Positions 1 through 50,097 of a DNA stretch of 64,000 bases are shown here, piece after piece. The notes under the pieces were generated by a model. It ran no database searches, was not told the origin of the DNA, and saw only the letters and a list, made by a program, of their open reading frames with translations. A program made the translations under genes and the position numbers. The stretch is from Ceratorhiza oryzae-sativae (taxonomy: Eukaryota; Basidiomycota; Agaricomycetes; Cantharellales; Ceratobasidiaceae), in NCBI GenBank assembly GCA_030998015.1, contig JARWMV010000020.1, positions 248,001-312,000 of the forward strand, in the 5' to 3' direction. Numbering within the stretch: the first letter of the stretch is position 1; the number at the start of each line of letters is the position of its first letter.

Positions 1-684
1 CCTGCCAGAAGCTTTGCAGGTAGCTTTGTTCTCCTCCTAAGCCAATCCAAAATATTCTCAATACTGATTTTGGATGGCAGCTATAAAGGTACATTAGTCT
101 TCATTTTGGCTAGTGATGAATCCAGGATCATGACAATCACATGTGACTGATCATCAAGAACCACAAGGAGCTGAAATGAGTGGTTAAACTATTAGCAAAG
201 CAATTTGGAGCAGGTTTTATTACTTACAGTTTTATTTGTTTGGTAGGGCTCAGGGCACTGTCAGTCAAGAACAGGAGGAGGTCATGGTTGGGAGCAGGTT
301 CAGGATCAACAATGGAGGTGGGATGGATTGCAAATTGCATACTCATGTGACTGCATGCACACCTGATATCACCAAGTTGGCTCACCACTACTTGCCACAA
401 TGAATTGTGTCAATAACTCTGGGTCTATCTCTGAGTCTATCTCTAGTACACTAGGTTATAAGACTGGAAAAAAGTACTTACTCTTGCAGCTGTGGTGAAT
501 GCTGGTGTAAACAACAAATCTATTGACATCTTTGCAAAGAGTCTCAAGCATGCTGTCTCTCTGAACAAGCTGAACTAGAGCCTTGTATTGATAACCTGTA
601 TGCTGCCAAATAAATTGAATCAGATGAGAACTCTAGAGCTAACACAGATGGGTCAAATGAAGATCACACAGACTATATGTGAAT
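1..684. repeat. CpG-free repeat fragment, probably a decayed transposon
   Basis: No CpG dinucleotide occurs from base 1 to base 684; the first is at 685-686. TpG and CpA are frequent. This composition matches the transposon island at 34.4-55 kb and differs from the host genes next to it. No reading frame is long enough to name a family, and no match to the other elements of this window was noticed. The fragment is cut by the window start. Transposon origin is inference from composition. Confidence 0.5.
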
Positions 685-2299
685 CGGCAAGTTATTTTAT
701 TTATTTATTTTGGAAAAGCGGATCTACCAGCACAAACAAGTTGCATGGAGCATATTTGTGAAGAACTTAAGTGATTCATATCTGTATAGTCTTGCGATTG
801 ATATGCCTTGCTAGATTCCAAAATCACTCTTCACTCCCCCACCTCCCTAGGTTCCAGCTCACCCAAAACATCCATGAACGAATCGTTGTGCATTTTCATT
901 GCAAACTCAGCCCCAATAGGACATTTAAATAAAGGTTCTATGTTGCTTCTCAACGAGGTAATCATTGGGGAATGCTCCGAATCGACAACCGAGGGGATCG
1001 TAATTGTATTTGAAGTGCTCACGTAGCAAATGCCCTATTGTCTCACGGTAGTCATGATAGTTTGTTTGTTTGGGTGAGGTTAATCAGATTATGGTGTTCT
1101 ATCTATTAGCATATTAGAGTTTATGTGTGAAGTCGACAGGAACGCCAGCCAACCACGAGAGCCGACAGAAATGGTCGAACTGACCGGCTATGGACGCCTC
1201 GACTTTACCGTCGCACTTGTCCTACCGGCCAACCCTTCTTTCGGCATCGACGACGGCCAAACACACGTCCTCGCCCATAAAACCGAAGCAAAAGACGCAT
1301 ACGCGACGCTACGATCAAACGAATGACGTATATGAAACTCAGATGATCGTTCGTTCTCGACATAACGTCGGTAAAGCACGTGGGCGGACGTGTCGAGACT
1401 TGAGGTGTCAAACCAGGAGGAAAATGGGCGATTATCGATCGGAGTGGCTCGCTCGTGCAGACGGTATTCTACCAGGAGCAGCTCGAGCTCGAGCCAGGAG
1501 AGGCTTCAAACGTAGTAAATAACTAATTCATTATCTTTTCCTCATGTCAGTCGCGCCGGTTTAAGATTCACCTCCCACGCATACACCTACATCCCGAGGA
1601 TTTAGGAGATCGGATTTAGGCGACCAGACTTAAGGGATCGGAATAAGGGGTTGGGATTGGGGTCGGAATGAGGGGAGTCGGAATTAGGAGGTCGGAATTA
1701 GAGATACGTACTATAGTGACATTGGCATTAGGTGTCGACTGACACCTAACTTTAGGTGGTTTCTTTTTCGTAGTGATATATGTCGATAGCCTTACGGAAC
1801 AGGAACACGGGTTGACTGTGAATAGCAAGATCTTGTCGGTTCCTTGGATCGGGTAATTGATAAGACGTGGGCGACAGATAAATCTATTAATGTGTGTGGA
1901 CCTACTGTTGAGGGCAGCATTGAAATTAAACACTATCGAACTTGCCTCCCGTGCGGTGTACATTCAAGTGTATATGCATCAGCAGCGTCCATTATTTTCC
2001 ATCAAGTTCAATCCTACTACCGTGCGAACCCACAGCTTGTTGTGAAGTGGCGATCGAGAATAGTTACCTTTTGGAGACATAATTTGGGGGTCTGCAGAGA
2101 ACGGCGCAAACTTGCATATACAAAAGAGAGTGGCTACAAAGTGGTAACGAATACAAATTGCCACGAATCGGCCACACCACTCACCTCTTCAGACAGTTGC
2201 TCAATTTTGCTTTTGTAGATTTAGTTGGACAAAGACGTAGCATGGATAAGTGAGCATGGCTGTGATGTTCGTCAACTGTGCCTGGTGCCCTCTAATCGC
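685..2299. other. No supported gene; contains a short degenerate tandem repeat
   Basis: CpG returns to host level here. Several short frames exist (for example on the minus strand at 831-1022) but none shows a recognisable domain, splice structure or codon pattern. The only clear structure is the tandem repeat at 1596-1702, listed separately. Confidence 0.5.
1596..1702. repeat. Degenerate short tandem repeat (about 13-15 bp unit)
   Basis: About seven to eight imperfect copies of a unit close to GGGATCGGAATTAGG follow each other, with variants such as CGGATTTAG, CGGAATAAG, CGGAATGAG and CGGAATTAG. The copies vary in spacing by one or two bases. No open frame or known repeat class was recognised. 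Confidence 0.6.
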
Positions 2300-4651
2300 A
2301 TGCTTTGTGCGTTTAGGCATTGGGATAGCTCAACAAAAATCGTCGTTGGGATCGACATCGGAACAACCTACAGTGCAGCCTCGTTTGCATACCTGATTGA
2401 AGGTAACGCCTAGAGCAGCTGTAGAGTATAGTGTTAATAGTTAGATAGGCCAACTACCCAGGGTCACGCGCGTTACCAAGTGGCCTAGCCAACGGCGCGA
2501 TGCAGAACGGGCTAGCATACCTAGTTGGATCTGGTATAATGCAGAGGGCAAGGTATGGCTAAGTATTGCCGCAAAGTATCCACTCCTCAGGTTTTTCGTA
2601 GCCTGTCAAATTGGGTGTTGAAGCAGCTGATGAGGAGATAGACGACGTTGCCTCAGAGAACGGGTGGAAGCTAGTGAAGCATTCCAAACTCCATCTACAT
2701 CCGAAAGATATGAGACCCCCCGGAGGTTTTATATTATCTGGTGAGTAGGCCGGAAACCTAATGGGAATAATTAATCATAATTGCTACCAGCGTTACCGGA
2801 TCGCCTCAATGTTGACGACGTCTACTGCCATTTGCTTCGCTACATGTTTGATCATGTCAAATCCTTCTTCTATAGGGAGATCTTCAATGGCCAGGAGGTT
2901 TGGGATAGATACGCTGGTTCAATGGACATTGTGATTACCCACGCGAACGGATGGGGAATACATGAGCAGTGACGGCTACGGGCAGCCGCAATCAAGGCGA
3001 AGCTGACATCCGCCGACAAGGCAAATACCCAGATCAATTTTGTCAGCGAAGCGGAAGCCTCGATTCATTTTTGTATTCATTCATTGAGGCTTTCCTCATC
3101 CATTATGGTAGGTCATTGATCTTTGTTTGGCGCCCCAAGCTTCACAACACAGTACTTTTGATAGGATGACGACAAGCTCATTGTATGCGATGCTGGGGGG
3201 TCGACAGTGGATACTACCGTCTATACGGTGAATTCAGTGCAGCCTGAACTTCTGATTGAAGAAATCAAACTATCTGCTTGTGAGAGGGCCAAGGGCACGT
3301 CGTATTTTAATACTCACATTTGACTCGGTTCAGGTATCCAAGCTGGCTCGATATTTGTGGACGAGGCCGCCACCGAGCACCTTCGCTCGAAATTGGAAGA
3401 TGCAGGGTTGAGCAAGAGCGAAGTCGACAGCTACGTCAAGAAAGGAACCGAGGAATTCAGCGAGATGGTTAAACGGAGTATGATGGGGTAAAGACAACCA
3501 TGGGATTTAAGATAGGAGAGAGATCGTTCAATAAATCGAATGTCGGCATCACAAATGGGAGGATGCGATTGCCGGGGTACGCATGGGTCGTCAAATGCAC
3601 GTGCAAGCAGATCATATTGATCATCCCCAGCGAGACAATCAAGTCGTTTTTTGACCCTTGTGTCAACAAGATATTGGAGTCCGTCCAATCTCAGGTGAAG
3701 AATGTCGAGAACCCTGTGAGTTTTGATTAAGATGTTGGTGCATGGAACTCTTTGGAATGATGATAGTACCTATTCCTGTCGGCGGTTTTGGGGATAACGC
3801 GTACCTCCAGAACAGCATGAAAAATCTCTTGGGCGATTCTGCGAAATTTAAGACCAATAACCGGCCAGGGTATTTCCTTATGTACTTGCTTTACATCAGC
3901 GCCTCTTACATACACGAATAATAAGCTAAAGCTGTTGCAGATGGAGCTGTGATCTGGGCAATCTGCCGAAGGGTCATCAGTCGAGCAGCACGTTATTCAT
4001 TTGGTGTACCTGTTGCAGTACCCTATGATCCCTCTAAACCGGAGCATATTAAACGTAAACCCAGCTTGAGTCCTCTTGGGACAATGATCCCTGGAGGATG
4101 GTCTGAGATAATTGCAAAGGTCAGCCTGATTCCACCATTGAAAATAATCACGCTATAACCGCTGTACCATAGGATACAGTTCTGAGCGCTGATTCTGTAG
4201 TTGGAGTAACCTATTGCCGCCCGCTCATGGTTGCACGGCCCGAATTTGCTGATTTCTCAGTGGTTCTATACTCTACAACGCTCCCAGGAGATACTGAATT
4301 CATGAAAGACGAAGATGGTTTGGGTTTCCAAGCTCGATTAACATCATTTTCTGACTACACTGGGAATTAGGGTCGGTGTTACCCGACTTTCACGAAGTCG
4401 GCACAATAACTGCCGATACGCAGGAACTTGTAGGACACCTTGATATGACATTTAACCCAATCGTTGGGGTGTTCTGGGCGGTGTCTTTTAAGGTATGCAT
4501 TCAATTCGGAGGTACCGAACTCAAAGCCTACATCGAATGGGAAGATGAAAAGGTATCGTACCATTCGCTTGACGCAAGGTCATGAACTTAAAAAGATTAG
4601 GGAAATATACAGAAGGGCAAGGCATTGATCACCCCGGCTTCTGTGGTTTGA
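2300..4651 (+). pseudogene. HSPA12-type Hsp70 family gene, broken by a stop and a frameshift
   Basis: Spliced pieces align along the whole length of the fungal HSPA12-like Hsp70 family (actin-like ATPase fold). Exon 1 (2300-2402) holds the first phosphate motif GIDIGTTYS. Exon 5 (3165-3279) holds the second, VCDAGGSTVDTT. Further exons give NGRMRLPG, the VGGFGDN motif near 3790, DGAVIW near 3940 and a C-terminal beta part ending at the TGA of 4649-4651. Introns are 45-60 nt with GT-AG ends (2403-2448, 2553-2601, 2741-2790, 3108-3164, 3280-3333, 3577-3630, 4553-4600). Two lesions stand out: an in-frame TGA at 2970-2972 where the family has a basic residue, and a one-base frame change in the G run near 3486-3488. 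The phase also fails at the 3715/3767 junction. Start chosen as the ATG in frame with the first motif. A sequencing error could explain one lesion but hardly all three. Confidence 0.75.
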
Positions 4652-37449: not shown

Positions 37450-37604
37450 TGTCATGACCTACTCAGCAGTCATAACAGAACAAGGGAGTCAATCTACTAT
37501 GAGTAGCAGTTCCTCACAAGGCAAAATAAGAGGTAAACAAGTTCACATGACCTTGGGTGCTTATCTTGATGCTTACCAACTTGCTCCTCTAAAATCTCTC
37601 CCAT
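37450..37604 (+). mobile_element. Fragment of an older LTR related to the Gypsy LTR
   Basis: Starts TGTCATGACC and follows the same order of motifs as the first 200 bp of the adjacent 5' LTR: CAGTCATAAC, AACAAGG then AGTC, TTACCAACTTGCTCCT, CTCTCCC. The 10.4-kb Gypsy element appears to have inserted into this older relative. The continuation on the far side (from 47974) is not clear to me. Confidence 0.55.
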
Positions 37605-38257
37605 TGTTATGACCCACACTAACAGTCATAACATAACAAGGAGTCTAGCCTGTAGTGTATAGCATTTTCCCCATGGTCAAACAAGCTAGAAACAGGTCAT
37701 GTGACACTGGCACTTACTGTGGTTACCCAACTCACTCCTGCAATTCTCTCCTTTGTAACTTGGAGCAAGGAGCAAGTTGTCACATGACTTCAGTGCTTAC
37801 ATGGGTGCTTACTGTGGTTACCCAACTTGCTCCTGCAATTCTCTCCATTGTAACTTGGAGTGAGGAGCAAGTTATCATGTGACTTCTGCACTTAAACCAT
37901 GTGACTCATGGACCCTGCGCAGCTCTATAAGGTTTGGAGCTGCAACAACCCTAAGAGCAACTTACATAACTCCTCATGCTATCATGTGACCCCCAATCAA
38001 CAATCACCCAGTGGCCCTTCATGTCACATGACCAGTAAACATTGTTGACTGTGGAACTGTCTGACTTGCCTCACATGAGGATATATAAGAAAACCAAAGC
38101 AAGGTTGATGGCCCCAGCTTGCTTTATCTTGTCAACCACAGGGGCCACTTGTACATAACACTAGATACATCAATATATACTATAGGAAAACACATAAGAA
38201 TGTAGCCACTACTTAAGGGATCAACAAGACAACAGAAGAGACAGAGGGGTCTCAACA
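37605..38257 (+). repeat. 5' LTR of the Gypsy element
   Basis: 653 bp, begins TGTTATGACC, ends GGGGTCTCAACA. TATA-like TATATAAG at 38082-38089. Contains an internal direct duplication with a 95-bp period (CTTACTGTGGTTACCCAAC at 37713 and 37808) and several CACATGAC or CATGTGAC sites. Confidence 0.93.
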
Positions 38258-38376
38258 TTATAAAGCAAGCTTCATACTTAACTAGTGGCAAGACAGATAT
38301 TTTGCACAAATATCAAGGGTTGAGTACAAGAGATACCAACTAACCTCTGTGTTACATAAGAGAACAACCAGCAACT

Positions 38377-40284
38377 ATGGTGCAGCAGAATACAGGAAGA
38401 GTTACTAGATCAATGAGCCAAGCAGCTAATCATCCACCAACAGAACCCACACAACCCCCACCACAGGTGGTACCTCAAGAAGAAGAACATCCAGACACCA
38501 CACTTACAGGAATGCCAGGAGGAATGCCCTGCACTAAGACAGTGCCATTCTTCCAACCAACCCCCCAGAGACCAATCCATATTGGTAGTGAGCCACCAGA
38601 GGAGGTAAGGCCTCCCCAAATACCACCAGTAACATCCCAGCAGGAACCAGAGGATGACTCAACAGATGAGGTGGAGAACATGACCTGCATCATGTATGAG
38701 CAAGGGGGCAAAATCCTCAATCCTGAAGAACCTGAAACTCCAAGGTATTTTTCTGAACCACCAGAAACCACAACATCACAACCACCAGGGGGGAACCCAC
38801 CCTGGAGAACCAGTAACCCTGTCCAAATAATTGCCACCACCCTAAGGGGTGGACTATTCACATTAAGGGAAAACACTCAGCATGAAATACAGAAGGCAAT
38901 TGGGGTTACAGAGCTGAATTGGAAGGTCCTGGAACAACAAGAGAGAAGACTAAAGGAAATGGAAATTAATGTGGCAGGAGGATGAGACAATGCATACATT
39001 GCTGCAAAAGCAGCCCAAAATGTGGAAGCAAACATCAAGAACCTGGAGGGACATATGGAGGGATGGAATTCAACCATCTGAGAGGTAAATACACCTATAC
39101 AAGAACAGACAAAAGTGATACAGTCTACACACAGCTGCTTGGACCATTTAGAGGAGATCTCCACTGCCATTGAGCAGTGAACCACTGACATAGCAAATGA
39201 ATTAAGGAGGGAAGCCCCCCCTGCAGAGCAACAAACACCAGATAGGGATGAACCTCCAACTCAACCAGGGTCTTGATCATCCTCCCCAACCCCCTTTGCA
39301 AGGAGGTCATTCCAAAGGGAGTCCACAGTCAGGCCCTTAGCCACACCAGTGGGTCAAGGCAGGAAGGAACCAGAAAACCCATCCTTTATGAATCAGACTA
39401 CCCTAACAAGTGCTACCATCCCCAAGCAGGCATGGGCAAAGAAACCAGAGGCCTTCAATGGGAGGAAGGGCAAGGAGGCCAAAACATTCCTGACCAAAAT
39501 GGAAATATACTTTGGGGACTATGAAGAAGGAACCTTCAATGATAATAGGAAAATATCCATCACCTTAATGAACATGAGCAGTGGTGATGCAGCAAATTGG
39601 GCACAGCCATTCTTAAAGAAAATCTCCAACAAGGAGGACCATGAATTCTTAAGGTCTTGGTCAGCCTTCAAGGCAGCATTCCTAAGCAACTTCCAAGACC
39701 CTGTCAAGAAAGAAAAGGCAATTTGGGAACTAGGCAAACTAAACCAAATCAAGAGTGCCCAATTGTATGCCACCCAGTTCTGCATTTTGGCACAAGAAGT
39801 AGACTGGAATGAAGATGCACTCATTGACAGGTTCAAAGAAGGATTGAAACCAGGAGTGAGGCAGGAACTGCTAAGAATGTCTATGTATGGAGCAGGAAAT
39901 CAACTGACCCTGGAGGAATGGATTGCACTGGCATGCAGGGCAGATGACCTAATATGTTCCAATAGAAAGCTCAACACAGGAGGAAGCACCAATCAGGGAG
40001 CCCCAAACTGGGGCTTGGCCAGCAGAACACCCCTTCAGGCCAAGGTCCAAACAGGGCAGAATGGGACATACACTGGTCACTGGCCAAGCAGTGCTGTCAG
40101 GATACCAAATGAGGAAAAAGACCAATGGAGAAAGGAGAAACTATGCATCAAATGTGGCAAGCCTGGACATGTGATGAAGGACTGCAGAGGACAATGGACC
40201 TACGACAAGGGCAAAATTGTGGGAAAGGCCAGCACCAAGAAGGAAACTAATGAACAAAAATCAGATTCAGAGTCAGAAAACTAA
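38377..40284 (+). pseudogene. gag: Gag polyprotein of the Gypsy element, four premature stops
   Basis: One frame runs from ATG 38377 to TAA 40282-40284, about 636 codons, interrupted by four TGA codons: 38983-38985, about 39079, about 39177 and about 39274. The N-terminal third is Pro/Glu-rich with an LEQQERRLKEME coiled-coil-like end. The middle has the Gag capsid signature (KPEAFNGRKGKEAKTFL, YFGDYEEGTF, AANWAQPFL). The C-terminus has a CCHC zinc knuckle, CIKCGKPGHVMKDC, for RNA packaging. The pol frame overlaps in -1 just before the gag stop, so a frameshift or re-initiation would have been needed for pol. Confidence 0.88.
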
Positions 40285-40301
40285 TAGGATCTACTGAATC
40301 C

Positions 40302-43300
40302 ATGTCAGTCGACCCAGTAAACACCCCAGCAGTCAATGTATATTCCCTTAAGAAATCAAGTAACCAATCTATAATATACACAACTGTTGAGGGAATCATG
40401 GAACCAGCTAGAACACTGATAGACTCAGGATCCTCTTGTAATTTCATGGACTCTGAATATGTCAGAAGAAAGGGAATCCTAACAGAACCTCTCAAGGCTA
40501 AGAGGTCAGTGATTGCAATCGATGGGAATGAAATCAAGGATGCAATCTCAGATAAGGCCAAACTACAAATTGAGGTAGAGGGCAAAACACTAAAATGCAC
40601 CTTCTACATAATGGACCTAGGGGACACACAGGTAATACTGGGTAAAGACTGGCTGGAAGAAGCAGAACCAGTCATTAAATGGAAAGATCTGTCCATATTG
40701 TACAAGGACAATATTGTCAGCAAAGCAGCAGAAGAAGTACCCTTAATTCCAGAGGAATTCAGGGATTTCATAGATCTGTTCCAGGAAGAGGGATTTAGCA
40801 AGCTCCCAGAGCATTGGCCCTTTGACTGTGAAATAGAATTTGTCAAAGGAGCAGAACTCCCCAAACCTGCAAAGATATACCCAATGACCCCAGCTGAATC
40901 AGCAGCCCTAAAGGAGTACACAGACAAGGAACTTAGGGATGGAAAGATAAGGAGGAGTAAATCAACCATCGTAGCCCCATGTTTCTATGTGAACAAAGCA
41001 GATGGAGGTTTAAGGTTGGTAGTAGACTACTGGAAACTAAATGCCATTACAAAGCCAGATCAATTCCCCATGCCAGTGCAAGAGGACCTTGTGGAGAAGC
41101 AAAAAGATGCCACAATATTTACAAAGATGGACATCTGTTGGGGCTTCAATAATATACAGATAAAGGAAGGGGACAAATGGAAAACAGCCTTTAGGAACAA
41201 ATATGGGATCTTTGAATACACAGTAATGGCATTTGGACTAAGGAATGGGCCCTCAATATGGATGCAATTCATAAGCTCCATATTTGAAGATCTCATAGAT
41301 GTGTATAGGGTGGTATACATGGATGACATACTAATATACTCCAATAGCTGAGAGGACCACAAAGAACATGTGAGGGAAGTTCTGAAACATCTCAGAAAGC
41401 ATCACCTATTTTTGAAACCTCACAAATGCAACGTCTTCACAACAAGAACAAGCTTAATTGGAATTGTGATAGCCCCAGAGGGCATATCAATGGAGAAAGA
41501 AAAGATCAAGGCAATAGTGGAATGGAAGGAACCCACCACTGTCAAACAAACCCAATCATTCTTAGGCTTTGCAAACTTTTACCACAGATTTGTGCCCAAC
41601 TTTAGCACAATAGCAAAGCCCCTGACAGAACTAACAAGGAAGGATGCCAAATGGAACTGGACTACCCAAGAACAAGAAGCTTTTAATGAGATCAAGAAAT
41701 CAATGGCAAGAGACCCAGTCCTCATACACCCAGACCCAAATAAGCCATACATTCTAAAAACAGATGCCTTGGGAGTAGCCAAAGGGGCAATCCTGAGCCA
41801 AAAGGGGGAAGATGGAAGGCTGCATCCAATAGCTTACTTATCAGAAAGCTTCACCCCACCACAAAGGAACTATGATACACACGACAAGGAGTTACTTGCA
41901 ATAGTCTGGTCACTGGAGTATTGGAGACTGTTCCTGGAGGGAACCAGAATACCCATTACAGTATATACAGACCATCAAAACCTCCAATATTGGCAGGAAG
42001 CCAAGATATGGAACAGAAGACATGCTAGGTGGCACCTGACCCTAGTGTCATTTAATTTCCAAATTGAATACTGTCCAGGGAAGCTATCACAAAAACCAGA
42101 TGCCCTGTCATGAAGGCATGGCCATGAGGACACACCAGATGAGCCACAAGTCATGATATCACCAGACAGATTCATTGGATTCAAGGCAGAGGTAAGGACA
42201 AACTTCCTACAGGAAGTAAAGGAAGCACAGGAAGAGGACACATCAATATCAGGCTTGATGCAAAGCATGTCACACAAGGTCAGTCTGCCACCAGCAATAA
42301 GGAAGGAGCTCAAGTGGTACAGTATGGAAGACAGTCTACTACAATATGATGGGAAAATTTATATACCAGAGGACAGTAATTTATGTCTAGAAGTACTGGA
42401 CAGACACCATGACTCACCAGTGGCAGGACACCAGGGGCATGCCCAGACCCTGGAGCTCATATCCAGGTAATACTATTGGCCAGGATTGAAGGCACAGGTA
42501 AATAGATATGTAGACCCCTGTGAATTCTGCCAACAAAGCAAGGGACACAAACAACCAGCACCCCTTAAGCCCCTACCAACACCAGAGAAGCCCTGGGAGG
42601 ACATAGCATATGACTTTATTGTCAAATTACTAATATCAAGAGGCTATGATAGCATTTTGACAGTAGTGGACTGTTTCTCAAGACAAGCACACTTCATCCC
42701 ATGCATTGAATTGACCAATGCAGAAGACCTAGCAGAAATATTCATCAGGGAAGTCTGGAAACTGCATGGAACACCTAAGACAACAGTATCCAACAGAGGA
42801 CCCACATTTAACAGCCAATTCCTAAGGGCATTATACAAGAACTTGGGGATAGAACCTAGATACTCCACAGCTTTTCACCTGGAGACTGATGGACTGTCAG
42901 AAAGAACAAACCAATGGGTGGAAGGATTTCTGAGAACCTTCTGCAATTACAGGCAAGATGACTGGGCAAAATGGCTGCCAATAGCAGAATTTTGTCACAA
43001 AAACCACAAGAATACAGCCACAGGCCAATCAGCATTTGAAACAGTCTATGGCACTAAGCTAGCATGGGAAATTCTAAGCAGGACTGGCACTGGACAAGTG
43101 GTGCTGGCAGCAGAAACAATGAAGAACCACATGAAGAAGATATGGGATGAGGCTAAGGCAGCCATGGAAATCCACAAAGGCATAGAAGGTCAAGGGACAG
43201 AGTTCAAAGCAGGGGACAGAGTATGGTTAATGCTAACTAACCTATCCACTAAATGCCCCTCAAAGAAACTTGACAATAGGAAAGGGGGCCCTTTCACCAT

Positions 43301-43742
43301 CACAGAAAAAATATCTTCACATGCATACTGCCTGGATCTACCCAAAACAATCAAGGTACACAATGTATTCCACATAAACCTCTTATCCCCATTCAAGGAG
43401 GACAAAGATTTTGGAAGGACCCAGGCAAAGCCTCTGCCAATCATAACAGAGGAAGGGCAAGAGGAATATGAAGTGGATCATGTGGTCAACTGGGAATGGC
43501 AGAAGGGCAAACTGTATTACCAGATCAGGTGGAAAGGGTATGATCCAATAGAAGACACAATGGAACATGCCAGCAAATTTGCCAAAATGAATGACTTGCT
43601 GGATGACTTGCACAAGTGCCTACCAGATGCACCAATACCAGGACAGCAGAGTCATAGGATCAATGACTTGAGAGGGGGGGGAAGCAAGAACAAACAGACA
43701 AGGAGGAGGAATATAAGGCAAGGGAAGGGGGACAGGACTTAG
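40302..43742 (+). pseudogene. pol: Pol polyprotein (protease, RT, RNase H, integrase, chromodomain), three premature stops
   Basis: One frame from ATG 40302 to TAG 43740-43742, broken at TGA 41349-41351, TGA 42111-42113 and TAA 42468-42470. Domains: protease with IDSGSSCNF; reverse transcriptase with KMDICWGFNNIQIKEGD and the intact YMDDIL box; RNase H with ILKTDALGVAKGAILSQ and YTDHQNL; integrase zinc part RHHDSPVAGHQGH and CEFCQQ; integrase core with VVDCFSRQAHF, then VSNRGPTF where the second catalytic Asp is Asn, and LSERTNQWVE; chromodomain YEVDHVVNWEWQ and LYYQIRWKGYDP, which would target insertion to heterochromatin. Arg-to-Trp (VVDYWKL) and Arg-to-Cys (DICWG) changes are also of the CpG-loss type. 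Confidence 0.92.
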
Positions 43743-43801
43743 TGACCCCTTCCTTGCCATAACCATCCTACCAACACTAGCCCCCCCCCCAAACCTTCAC
43801 C

Positions 43802-44620
43802 ATGAGCAACCACTATGCCCTACTATCTGATGGATATGCAGCTTCAGTTGAAAGGACCCAATCTTGGAGGGGTAAGAAGTACCCTTTCAAATCAGTCAAA
43901 CATGGAGGGCCCTGGGTGGATGCCCACCTATGCTCTTCACTGGAAGAAGCAAAGAGGTATGCACAAAGGATCCTGCCTGGGGCTAATCTAGACTATATTC
44001 CCCAGAAAGAAAGGGATGAGCAGAACTGGATTGACACACAAGTATATCTGGACCCAAATAGAGGCCCCCTCACATGGTGCCACTCAGGGGCACCAAAGAC
44101 ACAAAGTGCCATTATGTGCACCAAGATGTATGTAATAGATAACCTGGTTGGCTCCACAGTAGATGCAGTGGCCAAAGCAGCCAAGCAGCAGGGAAGGAAT
44201 GGGCAACCAGCCATCAGCATGCCAAGGGAAGAAGGGGAGATAACAAAGGATATGGTGGATTGGCTGAACACACAAGTGAGGGAATGGCATGAACTACCAC
44301 CTGCCCCATACTGGGGACTCCTCAAAGCAACAACAAGGGCAGACATGTACAACCTAATCGCCAGGAAGGGGGCCACCCCCAAAGATTTTGAAGACTGGCT
44401 ACAGGTCCACCCCAGGGAGGAGGAAGAAGAACTACAAAAGCTTGGGGATAGCATGGAGTCCCTAGTGCTTCTGGAAGGTAATGGGGAACCAGAAAAGGTG
44501 GCACCAAGACTTACAACAACTGGAGAATGGCAGGGGTGGGAGAACAAAGAAATGACAAGGGACCTGGAGGAAGCATCACAGGAGGAGCTGCAGCCACTCC
44601 TTGCACAGGGTGCCCCATAA
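43802..44620 (+). CDS. Unknown protein encoded between integrase and 3' LTR
   Basis: Intact 272-codon frame with a normal ATG, 59 bp after the pol stop. It starts MSNHYALLSDGYAASVE, has GGPWVDAHLCSSLEEAKRYA, then a middle part with GEITKDMVDWLNTQ and a Glu-rich C-terminus. The first 60 residues have a remote likeness to the RNase H1 N-terminal (viroplasmin-like) fold in spacing only; I do not claim it. No zinc, helicase or transmembrane motif. That it stays open across 819 bp, while gag and pol have seven stops, is notable but may be chance. Confidence 0.5.
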   Translation: MSNHYALLSDGYAASVERTQSWRGKKYPFKSVKHGGPWVDAHLCSSLEEAKRYAQRILPGANLDYIPQKERDEQNWIDTQVYLDPNRGPLTWCHSGAPKTQSAIMCTKMYVIDNLVGSTVDAVAKAAKQQGRNGQPAISMPREEGEITKDMVDWLNTQVREWHELPPAPYWGLLKATTRADMYNLIARKGATPKDFEDWLQVHPREEEEELQKLGDSMESLVLLEGNGEPEKVAPRLTTTGEWQGWENKEMTRDLEEASQEELQPLLAQGAP

Positions 44621-44708
44621 CCAAAGAAAACCATAAATGATCCAGACCCTTACTTTTTCCACAAGTATCTCAGAAAACTAGTAAAATATATTCTGGTAAT
44701 ACACAATA

Positions 44709-45296
44709 TCACCTCTGTCTACTAGAGGAAGCCTGTGAATAAGACTTATCAGCCTTCTGTTTGCTCTTTTTCACAGGGACATGTCCAGTGGGCTGATCCT
44801 TAGAGGAATCACCCCTGGACTGGATCTGACCAGCAGAGGAGTGGGTAAGCCATGGTGCCTCCCCCCCAGGGTAATCATGCATGAAGTTAGTGAGAGGCTC
44901 AGACCCCTCAGACCCAGAAGGTTCAGGGGGATGCAGAGTGGGAGCCTGACCCTCCTTGAAGAACTCAGCAAGGGCAGCCAGGTGTTCAGCTGTTTCCTCA
45001 GCACCTAACAGGGAAATGTTAACCAGGTTGCATGCTGAACAAAAAAAAGAACATACTGGGAAGGCCCACTGTAAGCCAGCTACCCACACCACTTTTGAAG
45101 TCAGCAAGGGCAGCATTGCAAATGGCAGCACAGTAGGCACAGTAAATCTCAGAAGGAAGAGACCAGCAAGTGCAGTCCAGTGGATCATAGTTAAGGGTGA
45201 TACTGCACATGATGAAGTGAATGAGAAGGAAGGGGGGGCCAGAGTTGCAAAGAAAAGCCCTGCATAGTTGGACAACAACACCAAACAACAAAACAA
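44709..45296 (-). CDS. Antisense open frame in the Gypsy element, unknown function
   Basis: A 195-codon open stretch on the strand opposite to gag-pol. The upstream end has no ATG and reads hydrophobic; the part from about 45000 down looks like protein: AEETAEHLAALAEFF, then an acidic Pro/Ser-rich segment, YPGGEAPWL and a basic Lys/Ser-rich end before the TAG. A spliced gene with its start further upstream is possible. Antisense genes between integrase and the 3' LTR are known in some LTR elements, usually without known function. Confidence 0.4.
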   Translation of the reverse strand: MFCCLVLLSNYAGLFFATLAPPSFSFTSSCAVSPLTMIHWTALAGLFLLRFTVPTVLPFAMLPLLTSKVVWVAGLQWAFPVCSFFCSACNLVNISLLGAEETAEHLAALAEFFKEGQAPTLHPPEPSGSEGSEPLTNFMHDYPGGEAPWLTHSSAGQIQSRGDSSKDQPTGHVPVKKSKQKADKSYSQASSSRQR

Positions 45297-45536
45297 TGAG
45301 CCATGTGACCCAGCCTAGTCACATGACCATACACTATCCCATTATACTGGAGGGGTTGGAGAGGGGGCACCAACTGGAGACAACAAGCAGAGGCCCTGAG
45401 TGTCAGCAAGGAAAAAGGCCAATGTGAGGAGCAAAGGAAGGGCACCCCTCAGAGATGCATCATCACCAACCAGAGGGGCAGTGTTGAAACAATCACATGA
45501 CCAGTAAACAATGAAAAAAGAGTTATTAAAGGGGCA

Positions 45537-45823
45537 ATGCCAACTGGAGTGATATGTCACACCCATATGCCCACCCCCCAGCCATCCAATACTCAACTAT
45601 CCCATGATGAACTTTATCAACAATGGACTGAGCAAGGGAACACCAGAGCTAAACAAGTAAGACAAACTACAGAGGTTGGTCTTGCTGTTGCCAGGGCCCT
45701 GGGAAGCAAGCCCACCCCCAAGCTAAGTTCTTTGCAGCCTACCTTGATGGATCCCAAGCCTGAAGAGCAGAGGTGGCAAGGGCAAAGCAGTGCCAAGATG
45801 CCAAAATTTCATGTGCAATCTTG
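45537..45823 (+). CDS. Small open frame upstream of the Rep-like gene, possibly its 5' exon
   Basis: Open from ATG 45537 for 95 codons, polar, with no known motif. A GT-AG pair at 45884-45944 (GTAAGC to ACATAG) lies between it and the open Rep frame, so an upstream exon of the Rep gene in this area is possible. Frames do not connect simply. Weak entry. Confidence 0.25.
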
Positions 45824-45927
45824 AGCAGCATTATTAACATGGAGTACATTGAGGGACAAGCCAACATCAGGGCTAGTGGCTTGGTAAGCAGCCTGTTACA
45901 AAAGAAGCCTAGCAGAATAACCTTTGA

Positions 45928-46968
45928 TATACACATATACATAGGTACAAGGCCTTCTGCCAGAGCTGGCCCAACCACTGGGCCACATTGGCAGTAGTAG
46001 AACAGCACAATCCTGAGGAACCAAACTACAACCCTGAGTACCCCCTCCACATCCACACCCTAACAATCAGCCAAGAATGCAAGGGTGGATGGAACACCCA
46101 GAATGCCAGATTCTGGGACTTCAAGGGGAATCACCCCAACATCCTGCCAAAGGATCTAAAGGATGGACTGGGGGGGAATCCAGCATGGGATGCCTTCAAC
46201 TACCTATGGAAGGCTGTGGGGGAAAATGGGGAGGAAGTGGAAGATCTGATGGCAGGGGATCTGACCCTTGAAGGATTGGAGGAGATTCTGCAAAAGGGAC
46301 AAGGAGGAAAGCAATCAAGGCAACAAGCAGACCTGGAGGATGGGGAGGAGATTGTAGGGGCTGCCACCAAGGAGGAGTTTTACTGCACATACAAACAACT
46401 CCGTCCCCTTCAGCTAACAATAGCATGGAACTCTGTATGTGCATATGCAGACTATACATACAAGAAGGATGCAGGACTCCTTGAGGTGATTCTGGTGGAA
46501 CTGGAGATACCAGGGGAGAGGAAGCATGTAGACCAGGTGGACAAGTGGTTCAGGGAGGACCTACAGGAAAGAAGGGCAGGAATGCAACACCACATCCTAG
46601 TAATCAAAGGAGAAACAGGAACAGGGAAGACAGCCTATGTGCAATCAAAGAGGTCCCACAGCTGAATGTGCAACACATGGAATGTGGGTGCATTGTCAGA
46701 AGAGGCTGACATCTGGATCCTGGATGATATGGTGGCCACTAATGGCAAATACTCACTCAAGGCTCTGAGCCTGTATGAAGTGGACTTCACAGGGTGCTAC
46801 AGCCATGTGAAAACTATGAAGGTCCAGCCAACCATCATACTGGGCAACAGCCAGACAGCCATCACCAAATGCTGGTCTGACATAGAAGGAGAGGAAGGAG
46901 AAAGATGGGTGGCAAAGAATGTGGAATGGGTAAACTCAGGGAGCCTGCTGTTCTTTGTATTCCCATAA
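45928..46968 (+). pseudogene. CRESS-DNA-virus-type replication initiator (Rep), interrupted
   Basis: Open from 45928 to a TGA at 46663-46665, then open in the same frame to 46968. It shows the two-domain Rep layout. HUH endonuclease: a candidate motif I (aromatic residues followed by SWPN) at 45955-45975, motif II with two histidines, HIHTL, at 46048-46062, and motif III YLWK with the nicking tyrosine at 46201-46212. Superfamily-3 helicase: Walker A GETGTGKT at 46609-46632, Walker B IWILDD at 46711-46728 and motif C IILGN at 46834-46848. In the viruses this protein nicks the origin and drives rolling-circle replication. Closest general likeness is the geminivirus/genomovirus side of CRESS Reps, which have colonised fungal genomes before. 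There is no proper start codon in frame and one stop, so this copy is not functional. It lies inside the LTR element. Confidence 0.8.
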
Positions 46969-47084
46969 AATACTACATATTGGGTGTTGCATGCCAGCAT
47001 TAGAAGCCTAACCAGATAAGACAAGCCCAGGCATGTCAAGACCATGGCGGCAAGCAAGGGGAGGATAAATAACCTCATGTAGCA

Positions 47085-47175
47085 TAAGGGTTAAGGGACC
47101 TGGCCTGACATGACTTACCTCATCCAAATGAACCACTTCAGGTCAAGGGTCATGAGTTTGAGTCCAGCACCCTTA
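47085..47175 (+). other. tRNA-like sequence, degenerate
   Basis: 91 nt with a perfect 7-bp end pairing (TAAGGGT at 47085-47091 with ACCCTTA at 47169-47175) and a stretch GAGTTTGAGTCC close to the polymerase III B-box, plus a loose A-box. The length would fit a tRNA with a long variable arm. The T stem does not pair well. It could be a decayed tRNA, a SINE head or coincidence. Confidence 0.25.
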
Positions 47176-47301
47176 ACCCCCTTGATGCATGAGATTTACC
47201 CCTTTTTTTTTATGGGAAAGAAGGCTAACAAAAAGAGGGGGGGGAATGAGGCCAGGGAACAACAATGAGTGTTACATCTCAAAATCCGCCAAGATGCAAC
47301 C

Positions 47302-47316
47302 AAAAGAGGGGGATAA
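47302..47316 (+). other. Polypurine tract of the Gypsy element
   Basis: AAAAGAGGGGGATAA directly before the 3' LTR, as expected for the plus-strand primer of reverse transcription. Confidence 0.75.
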
Positions 47317-47968
47317 TGTTATGACCCACACTAACAGTCATAACGTAACAAGGAGTCTAGCCTGTAGTGTATAGCATTTTCCCCATGGTCAAACAAGCTA
47401 GAAACAGGTCACATGACTCTGGCACTTACTGTGGTTACCCAACTCACTCCTGCAATTCTCTCCTTTGTAACTTGGAGCAAGGAGCAAGCTGTCACATGAC
47501 TTTGGCACTTACATGGGTGCTTACTGTGGTTACCCAACTCACTCCTGCAATTCTCTCCATTGTAACTTGGAGCAAGGAGCAAGTTATCACATGACTTCTG
47601 CACTTAAACCACATGACCCATGAACCCTGTGTGGCTCTATAAGATTCAGAGCTGCAACAACCCTAAGAGCAACTTACATAACTCCTCATGCTATCATGCA
47701 ACCCCAAATCAACAATCACCCAGTGGCCCTTCACATCACATGACCAGTAAACATTGTTGACTGTGGAACTGTCTGACTTGCCTCACACAAGGATATATAA
47801 GAAAACCAAAGCAAGGCTGATGGCCCCAGCTTGCTTTATCTTGTCAACCACAGGGGCCACTTGTACATAACACTAGATACATCAATATATACTATAGGAA
47901 ACACATAAGAACATAGCCACTACTTAAGGGATCAACAAGATGACAGAAGAGACAGAGGGGTCTCAACA
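47317..47968 (+). repeat. 3' LTR of the Gypsy element
   Basis: 652 bp, same termini as the 5' LTR and followed by the target duplication CCCAT (47969-47973). Differences from the 5' LTR are mostly TpG on one side and CpA on the other. Confidence 0.93.
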
Positions 47969-50097
47969 CCCATGGTTTACATAAGCAAATTGCCATGAAA
48001 AGTGGTACACATTCTGTGCTACATTGACCATCTTATCAAGCAATTTGTAAGTGTTAAAATGAATGAGACAGTGCATGATGTAATGTAATATAGATTAACA
48101 AATCAATATCTCAACATACAGCCTGAGAAACTGAATGTTTGATACATGCACAGCAAGCCTCAGCATTAAGCAGAAACTGAAGCAACAGGGTGAGTTTGAA
48201 TATATCTCAAGGCCATCTCTGAGACTAGAGCCCTCCTTTTTGTCATGAGCCATGATCAAAGGTCTCATGGCTAACCATCATTTTTTCCTTTGTTCACCAC
48301 TTTTGTCTTGTGGCTTGACCACCTTCCCTTCATGAGTAAGCACCTCCACTTGCTTACTGAGCCATGCTCTATTTTTAGTCACTCACTTACTGATCACAGC
48401 CATTTGCCTTGCTCATCTTACTACCTGTCACAAGATGATGCACATATATCCACTCCATAATATTTTCTTGATTTATTATATTTTATGAGATCATTTTCAA
48501 AACATACTTGCCTTTTATGGTACATCTGTATCATGTGACTCATGGAATGTTCCAGACTGCTGACTGGGATGTATTTCAACTTTGATGTGAAATTCCACAG
48601 CTCTGCAGCAGCTTCTATCTCTTATCAGATGTGACTCACTGTATGGACTTGTTTGTTATGATGTGGCTTGTAGAATGTATATTAACTTGGTCATGTTTGC
48701 AGAGGACTCCTCAAGAACTTGTCCTCTTGTTGAATCCAAGTTCTTTTCTTTTACTCTCTATTTTGCTTGTTGCCTGACTTGTTGTTGTCAACATCAGGTC
48801 AAGTTCTTTTCAATCATAAGTCTCAGTATTGCCTGGGATATGTCTGGAACACCATCAGCATTGTCTTAAGATAACCCCCTGTTGCCTTCCCCAATCCTAC
48901 TCCACCCCTCCACAGTTACAAGACATTGTTGCCCTATATGTGCCTCTGTGAAACCCCTGCATACCTATATCACAGTTGGGTCCCTCACACATCATAACAA
49001 GCTTTGGTTCTCTAATCTCTTCCATCAACAAGATGTGGGGTCACTCATTGCCCTTAAGTAGTTGAGCAACAGAGGTCACCTTCCTATTCCAATAGACTCA
49101 GGAAAGGGTCTATCTTTTCTCTCTGGGCTCTATCTGGTCCTTGCTCAAGTACATCTCTGATGGAACACACAGCCCTTAGTGGCACAAAATTTTACAGAAG
49201 ATCAGCACTGTCACCTTTGTGGGTGGTTCAGACACTTATCCATCCATTTTTTTACCCTCAACTTGGTCAAAGAATCCTTGAGGAGGCCAGGCACATTAAC
49301 TTCAACTGAGTCAAAATTGTTAAAGTCCATCCCCAGAAAGTCAGACAAGCCCAACAAGCCCATGTTACTGAACCAGGAGCCCCTGAGTGCAAGATCTGCC
49401 ACCAGCCAAACCAAGCCACCTTCCCAGCACACTGCCCCTACTGTCCTAAGAAGGACAAATTTTTATACTACTACACCATCCCCCATCATCAGCTCTAAGC
49501 TGGAGAACCTTGGCCAGCAACTTCTTTGTCACCTGTTAGATACCATCCACAACTTCCAAGAAAGGTGTCACTACTACCAAAACAAGTACAAAGAAATGCA
49601 GGAGAAACTTCATGAGGCTGAGGCCCACTGTGCACATCTAGTCAAGAGACTGCACAAACATCAGGAGGATTACCTGTCCCTTCTCCATGACCACCATGAG
49701 CTACAACAGCAGGTTTGTGAAACAACTGCACCCCATGAGTACACATTTCCTGTTTTCTCAACCCCATCAGACCTCCCTCACCCTACCTTCCTAAGTGGCT
49801 CAAGCTTGCCAATTCAAGGGGAGGTGATCTTTCAAACAACCCAAATTGATTTTCCCCAAGGAAGCTCTCCTTTGGGACCCAACTAAACTAAAAAGGGTCA
49901 AGGTACTGTGTTGTTGTCAGGATATCAAAAGTTGGGACTTGGACAATACCTGGTTGAGATTTGGCAAAATTGAAAACTTTAAATTCTATAAACTTGTGTG
50001 CAGATCAGAAACCTTCTGGTATTACAATAATCCCCAATTTCCTGTACTTCCTCACTGCCTTTGTTGCCTATAAATCTATTTGAGAATCTCCCAAACA
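47969..50097. other. CpG-free decayed transposon sequence, including an unassigned open frame
   Basis: No CpG-bearing host sequence and no intact gene. A plus-strand open stretch at 49179-49886 has a coiled-coil-like middle rich in His, Gln and Glu. An overlapping frame near 49390-49450 shows CKICHQ and HCPYCPKK, a zinc-finger-like C-X2-C pair. This suggests a frame-shifted transposon protein; the family is not recognised. The region just before 50098 may be the leader of the older gag. Confidence 0.45.

What the first reader, a model, noticed from the sequence alone, without database searches (positions are those of the whole stretch)
45928..46968. A CRESS-virus-type Rep gene carried inside a Ty3/Gypsy retrotransposon
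A rolling-circle replication initiator with HUH motifs (HIHTL, YLWK) and an SF3 helicase (GETGTGKT, IWILDD, IILGN) lies between the chromodomain and the purine tract of an LTR element with a perfect 5-bp target duplication. Endogenous Rep genes are known in fungal genomes, but I know of no Gypsy family that carries one as cargo. If it is a stable part of the family, the element joins a reverse-transcribing and a single-strand-DNA replication module. It sits in frame-preserved form with all motifs legible, although the copy around it is heavily decayed.
Basis: partly seen in the sequence, partly recalled or inferred. Interest (0 to 1): 0.93.

Follow-up and report, generated by a model that had tools for sequence, protein, structure and literature searches.

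The report
Retrotransposon family with viral Rep gene
A large family of LTR retrotransposons in a Ceratobasidium-like fungus carries, as a conserved gene of its own, what looks like the DNA-replication-starting protein of small circular single-stranded DNA viruses, so two different ways of copying mobile DNA meet in one element.

Summary
The window copy (37605-47968; LTRs 94% identical, CCCAT target duplication) is a Ty3/Gypsy chromodomain element with a geminivirus/genomovirus-like Rep gene between integrase and purine tract. Rep is no one-off insertion: the genome gives 151 Rep matches; 89 of 104 integrase hits have Rep downstream on the same strand; six apparent exceptions that I fetched all hold Rep remnants. 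Rep is under purifying selection (dN/dS about 0.06 between two lineages, 0.07-0.13 between deeper ones; 0.86 between decaying window-type copies). HxH, HPN and YxxK are invariant in 36 of 36 copies examined. Two more distant Gypsy copies run from chromodomain straight to the LTR, without Rep. Named relatives of the protein are all from Ceratobasidium; ten literature searches gave no description. The Rep assignment rests on seven ordered motifs plus weak profile matches; structure prediction failed. The role (most likely nicking and unwinding the element's own DNA) is inferred: no origin and no rolling-circle footprint was found.

The parts
37600..37604 (.). target site duplication CCCAT, left
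37605..38257 (+). 5' LTR (TGTTATGAC...CAACA)
   Evidence: starts with a perfect 9-bp stem hairpin
39277..40284 (+). gag (Retrotrans_gag, Ty3_capsid, zinc knuckle)
40254..42113 (+). protease, reverse transcriptase, RNase H (interrupted)
42471..43742 (+). integrase, Tf2-1-like SH3, chromodomain
43781..44620 (+). ORFX, unknown conserved ORF of the family
   Evidence: no Pfam match at E<=10; 43% identity to the ORF in L009
45537..45883 (+). Rep exon 1 (start inferred from the first ATG of the frame); motif I LLTWS at 45831-45845; in-frame TGA at 45822-45824
45884..45944 (+). Rep intron (inferred), GT..AG, 61 bases; same position in L002, L003, L004 and L005, precisely absent in 19 other copies
45945..46968 (+). 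Rep exon 2: motif II HIHTL 46048-46062, GRS-like FWDFKGNHPNI 46111-46143, motif III YLWK 46201-46212, Walker A 46609-46632, Walker B WILDD 46714-46728, motif C IILGN 46834-46848; in-frame TGA at 46663-46665
47074..47195 (+). conserved 122-nt hairpin between Rep and the 3' LTR
   Evidence: z -5.2; 8 of 34 consensus pairs with changes on both sides
47302..47316 (+). polypurine tract (by eye)
47317..47968 (+). 3' LTR
47969..47973 (.). target site duplication CCCAT, right

Best explanation
A lineage of chromodomain Ty3/Gypsy retrotransposons carries, between pol and the purine tract, a 3.5-kb module that holds an unknown gene (ORFX), a CRESS-type Rep of the geminivirus/genomovirus lineage and a conserved hairpin. 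It has kept the module as part of the element through amplification and through recombination between copies. Shown: presence in nearly all copies tested, purifying selection, invariant nuclease residues, and an intron that most copies lack precisely (hence, by inference, passage through a spliced RNA). Inferred: the element makes Rep from a spliced transcript, and Rep nicks and unwinds the element's own DNA (its cDNA, LTR circles or integrated copies) through its HUH tyrosine and SF3 helicase, raising the amount of element DNA or opening it for integration. I put about 0.95 on Rep being a fixed, selected gene of the element, 0.88 on its being a CRESS-type Rep, and 0.5 on the DNA-level role.
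For: Family and place. Rep identity: ordered motifs and GRS (published genomovirus motifs in PMC4459443 Table 1, PMC8309985 and PMC11052389, passages seen); Gemini_AL1_M over nearly its whole length just before Walker A, E 0.001 in P0009 and 0.026-0.057 in L006, P0008, P0022, P0024 and P0036; hhalign to six plasmid/inovirus Reps, E 0.0013-0.0017 over the helicase. Selection: variants shared by five or more of 17 copies are 85 synonymous to 16 nonsynonymous; without CpG transitions 73 to 14; pairwise dN/dS 0.055-0.061 at dS 0.54-0.63, and 0.07-0.13 between deeper lineages, some with saturated dS. Both HUH histidines, HPN, the tyrosine and the lysine of motif III are invariant in 36 of 36 copies, which argues for catalysis. 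Intron present/absent. Module absent from two more distant Gypsy copies.
Against: No origin shown: a scan for perfect 9-bp stems found no nonanucleotide in a loop in the window copy or L009; the one nonanucleotide-like match lies in pol of the window copy, outside any hairpin. LTR-terminal palindromes are not special: one of the two Rep-less copies seems to have a 5-bp one (by eye). No clear excess of neighbouring copies: 11 Rep pairs within 14 kb against about 6.3 expected, 7 on the same strand; the abutting copies in L015 and L020 look like nested insertions. Motif I has W for Y and lacks Q. Gemini_AL1_M stays below its cut-off and is missing at E<=0.5 in 5 of the 10 proteins; in L006 PRMT5_TIM (0.017) and in P0024 Jiv90 (0.0048), both short partial matches, score better. 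No sequence match to solved Reps, PF00799 found nothing here or in its controls, and both structure models were poor.
Confidence: 0.55

Rival explanations
1. Rep is a regulator: it binds element DNA and host factors to counter silencing or methylation, or to push the cell towards S phase, as geminivirus Reps are known to do (recalled), with no rolling-circle step.
For: Copies decay in good part by transitions at CpG, so methylation-linked silencing is plausible in this genome; no origin or tandem footprint was found.
Against: The nuclease residues, not needed for such a role, are invariant in 36 of 36 copies.
Confidence: 0.25
2. Rep helps the ordinary retro cycle by nicking: at target DNA, at LTR ends, or as a chromatin-targeted nickase, without amplification.
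For: The gene sits where accessory genes such as env sit in other elements (recalled); a derivative with one shared internal deletion (L009 positions 490-4137), which lost RT and RNase H, keeps a long open Rep frame in L019 and L020.
Against: Rep-less relatives have integrase and chromodomain and do without it.
Confidence: 0.15
3. Accidental insertion of an endogenous viral Rep into one copy, now a passenger.
For: The window copy is decayed, with two in-frame stops, and window-type copies evolve near neutrally (dN/dS 0.86).
Against: Shared by many copies and several subfamilies at the same place; dN/dS about 0.06.
Confidence: 0.02
4. The protein is another P-loop ATPase, not a CRESS Rep; the HUH-like motifs are coincidental.
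For: No Pfam model over its cut-off; weak P-loop matches to nSTAND3 (11 of 15 members, against 7 of 15 for Gemini_AL1_M) and AAA; folds uninformative.
Against: Seven motifs in order, including GRS, 0 of 200,000 shuffles; match to the geminivirus Rep central domain in the right place; HUH, GRS and motif III residues invariant.
Confidence: 0.08

Closest known systems
Geminivirus-like transposon of Tuber melanosporum (Liu et al. 2011, PMC3198968; passages seen)
   Same: a geminivirus-like Rep gene multiplied in a fungal genome as part of a transposable element
   Different: 37-bp terminal inverted repeats and transposase ORFs, no target duplications, described with an interrupted Rep; the passages mention no LTRs
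Ty3/Gypsy chromoviruses of fungi
   Same: gag, PR, RT, RH, INT, chromodomain, LTRs, 5-bp target duplication
   Different: 3.5 kb with ORFX, Rep and a hairpin between pol and purine tract; two more distant copies in the same genome lack it
Genomovirus and geminivirus Reps
   Same: motif order, GRS-like HPNI motif, central-domain similarity; a Rep intron is drawn for gemycircularviruses (figure legend in PMC4459443)
   Different: motif I LTWS instead of LTYxQ, overall sequence barely related, no circular genome or capsid gene seen, encoded in a retrotransposon
Helitrons (recalled)
   Same: a mobile element that encodes an HUH nuclease and a helicase
   Different: here an SF3-type motif set, one tyrosine, LTRs and integrase-type target duplication

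Membership tests
Ty3/Gypsy chromovirus | gag-PR-RT-RH-INT order with chromodomain | tested here: met
Ty3/Gypsy chromovirus | LTRs, purine tract, short target duplication | tested here: met
CRESS-type Rep | HUH motifs I, II, III in order before an SF3 helicase (Walker A, B, C) | tested here: met
   motif I deviates (W for Y, no Q)
CRESS-type Rep | HUH fold and SF3 fold | tested here: inconclusive
   models with mean pLDDT 34 and 44, no Foldseek match at E<=0.001
Geminivirus/genomovirus Rep lineage | GRS motif between motifs II and III | tested here: met
   FWDFxGxHPNI, compared by eye with the table in PMC4459443; HPN invariant in 36 of 36 copies
Geminivirus/genomovirus Rep lineage | Pfam Gemini_AL1 and Gemini_AL1_M above cut-off | tested here: not met
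   Gemini_AL1_M 19.5 bits at best against a cut-off of 24; Gemini_AL1 none, though that search rang in no control genome
Geminivirus/genomovirus Rep lineage | place in a Rep tree | not tested
   no reference gemini/genomovirus Reps could be fetched
Genomoviridae / Geminiviridae (virus) | small circular ssDNA genome with capsid gene | tested here: not met
   integrated LTR element of 10,364 bases; ORFX has no match
CRESS rolling-circle replicon | origin hairpin with nonanucleotide nicked by Rep | tested here: inconclusive
   none recognised in the window copy or L009; activity not testable here
Geminivirus-like TIR transposon (Tuber) | terminal inverted repeats and transposase | tested here: not met
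   LTRs and retroviral-type integrase instead

The most novel reading that the evidence does not exclude
A dual-mode mobile element: it moves by reverse transcription and integration, and between those steps multiplies its extrachromosomal DNA by Rep-driven rolling-circle or rolling-hairpin replication, so that one reverse transcription gives many integrable copies. This would be a natural union of a retroelement and an ssDNA replicon.
Probability: 0.3. Interest if true: 0.96.

Novelty: new variant of a known kind. Interest (0 to 1): 0.88.

Why it matters
Retroelements and rolling-circle replicons are regarded as separate classes of mobile DNA. Here what looks like a rolling-circle initiator has been kept under purifying selection as a gene of an LTR retrotransposon, in many copies, with relatives of the protein in several Ceratobasidium isolates. 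It makes directly testable whether LTR elements can amplify as DNA, and shows one way in which ssDNA-virus and retroelement genes come together. The relatives are annotated only as 'hypothetical protein', so transposon and viral-gene annotation would gain a Rep family.

Tried and rejected
Accidental single insertion: rejected. LTR-terminal hairpin as a Rep-specific origin: weakened, because one Rep-less Gypsy copy also seems to have a terminal palindrome. Tandem arrays as rolling-circle footprint: the abutting copies in L015 and L020 read as nested insertions, and the number of close pairs is not far from expectation. The 122-nt hairpin as a tRNA gene: ARAGORN (window and seven loci, bacterial settings) and Rfam (window, L009, L018) found nothing there; Rfam's only match, mir-1976 at 43715-43760 below its gathering score, lies elsewhere. 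The reverse-strand ORF at 44709-45314: similarity in relatives is patchy, not followed. ORFX: no homologue at E<=0.01 in the large protein collection and no Pfam match, so it could not be used to test linkage in other species. Structure of Rep: two AlphaFold2 jobs gave mean pLDDT 34 and 44, so the Foldseek results are set aside. Viral contigs: no relative; two motif scans for reference Reps gave four contigs of 13-46 kb, not used, and none. A tree with geminivirus and genomovirus Reps was not made, because I had no such sequences and would not type them from memory.

Limits of the counts. Of the 15 integrase hits without a listed Rep I fetched four, and of the 13 hairpin hits without one six (the same four and two more); the other 11 and 7 were not looked at. 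Five of the 89 integrase-Rep pairs are more than 7 kb apart and may join neighbours. Hairpin lists were capped at 40 each. The 17 copies come from the top of the hit list, so they lean towards intact ones; for I added 12 other copies, ten of them picked by hand from lower ranks, 36 in all, 22 of them without stops in exon 2 as aligned. L010, L011 and the window copy were left out of the mapping as too divergent from the reference L009. One row (L041) is frameshifted; its pair with L006 gives dN/dS 0.48 and is not counted. The codon-model run printed no omega; pairwise values are used.

Full report
What is there. The window copy is a Ty3/Gypsy element with LTRs at 37605-38257 and 47317-47968, 94% identical, flanked by CCCAT on both sides; 35 of 37 LTR mismatches are transitions. 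Pfam finds gag, protease, RT, RNase H, integrase, a Tf2-1-like SH3 domain and a chromodomain in that order. Downstream lie an unknown ORF (ORFX), the Rep-like gene, a strong hairpin and the purine tract.

The Rep gene is larger than reported. Aligning 24 copies showed an intron-like GT..AG stretch at one codon in five of them (window, L002, L003, L004, and with another length L005) and its precise absence in 19. In the window it is 45884-45944; exon 1 carries motif I (LLTWS), and exon 2 carries motifs II, GRS, III and the helicase motifs. Two in-frame TGAs, at 45822-45824 and 46663-46665, break this copy; copies with uninterrupted frames exist in the genome. The likeliest history is an ancestral intron, lost when a spliced RNA was reverse transcribed. 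Two other proteins, P0022 and P0044, have an insertion at the same place that looks like an unspliced intron.

Is it a Rep? Published genomovirus Reps have motif I (uuTYxQ), HxH, GRS (for example FDVEGFHPNI), YxxK, GxxxxGKT, uuDDu and uxxN (passages of PMC4459443, PMC8309985 and PMC11052389). The family has LTWS, HVHAL, FWDFEGxHPNI, YLWK, GETGTGKT, WILDD and ILGN in that order. The ordered set occurs in 0 of 200,000 shuffles, and in 13 of the 81 family proteins, many of which are fragments. Pfam Gemini_AL1_M matches nearly its whole length just upstream of Walker A, below its cut-off (19.5 of 24 bits, E 0.001 in P0009; 7 of 15 members at E<=1; 5 of 10 proteins at E<=0.5). Short partial matches to nSTAND3, PRMT5_TIM and Jiv90 are as good or better in some members. 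A profile of one Bifidobacterium plasmid Rep and five inovirus Reps aligns over Walker A and B and on to a conserved RY, E 0.0013-0.0017 but with a probability of only 16-18%. Against: no match to solved structures by sequence, PF00799 silent (also in its controls), and two failed structure models. I hold the assignment at about 0.88.

Is it part of the family? The genome (48.8 Mb) gives 151 Rep matches, 150 of 206 first-look candidates having been scored. Twenty flanked stretches have the same order, with parts missing in some. Of 104 integrase hits of the family, 89 have a Rep hit on the same strand within 12 kb downstream, 80 of them within 3.5 kb; by my arithmetic about two would be expected by chance. 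Of 80 hits of the hairpin (two capped lists), 67 have Rep within 1.5 kb upstream. I fetched six of the 13 hairpin exceptions, four of which are also among the 15 integrase exceptions; all six contain Rep remnants, down to 68 residues in L046. The remaining exceptions were not examined, so copies without Rep may exist, but none was seen.

When did it come in? RNase H hits fall into steps of identity to the window copy: 87-100%, about 65-75%, about 55-58% and about 45-50%. One copy of the 56% step (C243) and one of the 45% step (C252) were read past pol: the chromodomain ORF is followed at once by a purine tract and an LTR-like start, and no ORFX or Rep hit better than E 0.13 is found in the next 4.5-5 kb (LTR starts judged by eye). 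Rep remnants lie about 3-5 kb downstream of a 58% hit on C241, which may be a decayed family copy. The simplest reading is that the module was gained within the Gypsy tree of this fungus's ancestors; loss in the two relatives is not excluded. Named protein relatives are all from Ceratobasidium (AG-Ba, 394, 395, 414, 428, UAMH 11750); the rest are unnamed jgi, lgn, ena or ncbi sequences (about 8,000 candidates scored in each). Whether these lie in the same element could not be tested. That the window's own fungus is a Ceratobasidium relative is inferred from this.

Selection. In 17 copies mapped on L009, Rep variants shared by five or more copies are 85 synonymous and 16 nonsynonymous, against 41 and 47 for singletons; differences by codon position are 246, 211 and 963. 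Leaving out CpG transitions, shared variants are 73 to 14. Pairwise dN/dS is 0.055-0.061 between two lineages and 0.07-0.13 between deeper ones (dS up to 2.4, so rough), but 0.86 between two decaying window-type copies. HxH, HPN and YxxK are invariant in 36 of 36 copies; the Walker A lysine in 35, the two Walker B aspartates in 34 and 31, the motif C asparagine in 35.

Modules. Along the element, gag-pol is 97.7-100% identical to L009 in 300-base windows in both groups of mapped copies, while the ORFX 3' part (79-88% in one group) and the Rep helicase half with hairpin (84-88% in the other) each come in two alleles that split the copies differently. This is a mosaic, as expected from template switching between packaged RNAs. 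A derivative with one shared deletion (L009 490-4137) keeps a long open Rep frame in two fetched copies.

Mechanism. Shown: a conserved gene with intact catalytic motifs, with an intron in some lineages, fixed in an LTR element. Inferred: it acts on the element's DNA. An amplification role predicts an origin and multimers. I found no nonanucleotide hairpin and no clear excess of neighbouring copies. The conserved 122-nt hairpin next to Rep (window energy -47.9 kcal/mol, z -5.2, 8 of 34 consensus pairs with changes on both sides in 12 copies) is a candidate site but may as well work in RNA.

In print. Ten searches of the held library listed no paper whose title or abstract start tells of a Rep in an LTR retrotransposon; passages of PMC3198968, PMC8309985, PMC11052389 and PMC4459443 were seen, no paper in full. 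The nearest is the Rep-bearing inverted-repeat transposon of Tuber (PMC3198968).

Noticed in passing
47074-47195; L009 8417-8539 and others: Strongly folding 122-nt hairpin, with a B-box-like GGTTCGAGTCC in many copies, conserved across subfamilies between Rep and 3' LTR; not recognised by Rfam or ARAGORN.
   Followed up: partly
43781-44620; L009 4952-5851: ORFX, conserved between integrase and Rep (variants shared by five or more copies: 41 synonymous to 8 nonsynonymous), with no relative found.
   Followed up: partly
L009 5401-6300 and 7501-8700 against L012-L028: Mosaic alleles of ORFX and of the Rep helicase half on an almost uniform gag-pol backbone, suggesting recombination between packaged RNAs.
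   Followed up: yes
L019, L020 (C164, C143); also C186 and C3 integrase hits: Deletion derivative with identical breakpoints in L019 and L020 (most of gag, RT, RNase H and the integrase start lost), Rep frame open; integrase hits on C186 and C3 start at the same residue.
   Followed up: partly
L018 6980-7597 and similar: An open frame of about 206 aa overlaps the start of Rep in another frame in many copies; whether it is a gene is unknown.
   Followed up: no
37605-37633 and 47317-47345: The 5' LTR starts with a perfect 9-bp palindrome stem (one mismatch in the 3' LTR); weaker forms in other subfamilies and perhaps in one Rep-less Gypsy copy.
   Followed up: partly
44709-45314, - strand: 201-aa open frame on the reverse strand with patchy similarity in relatives.
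   Followed up: no
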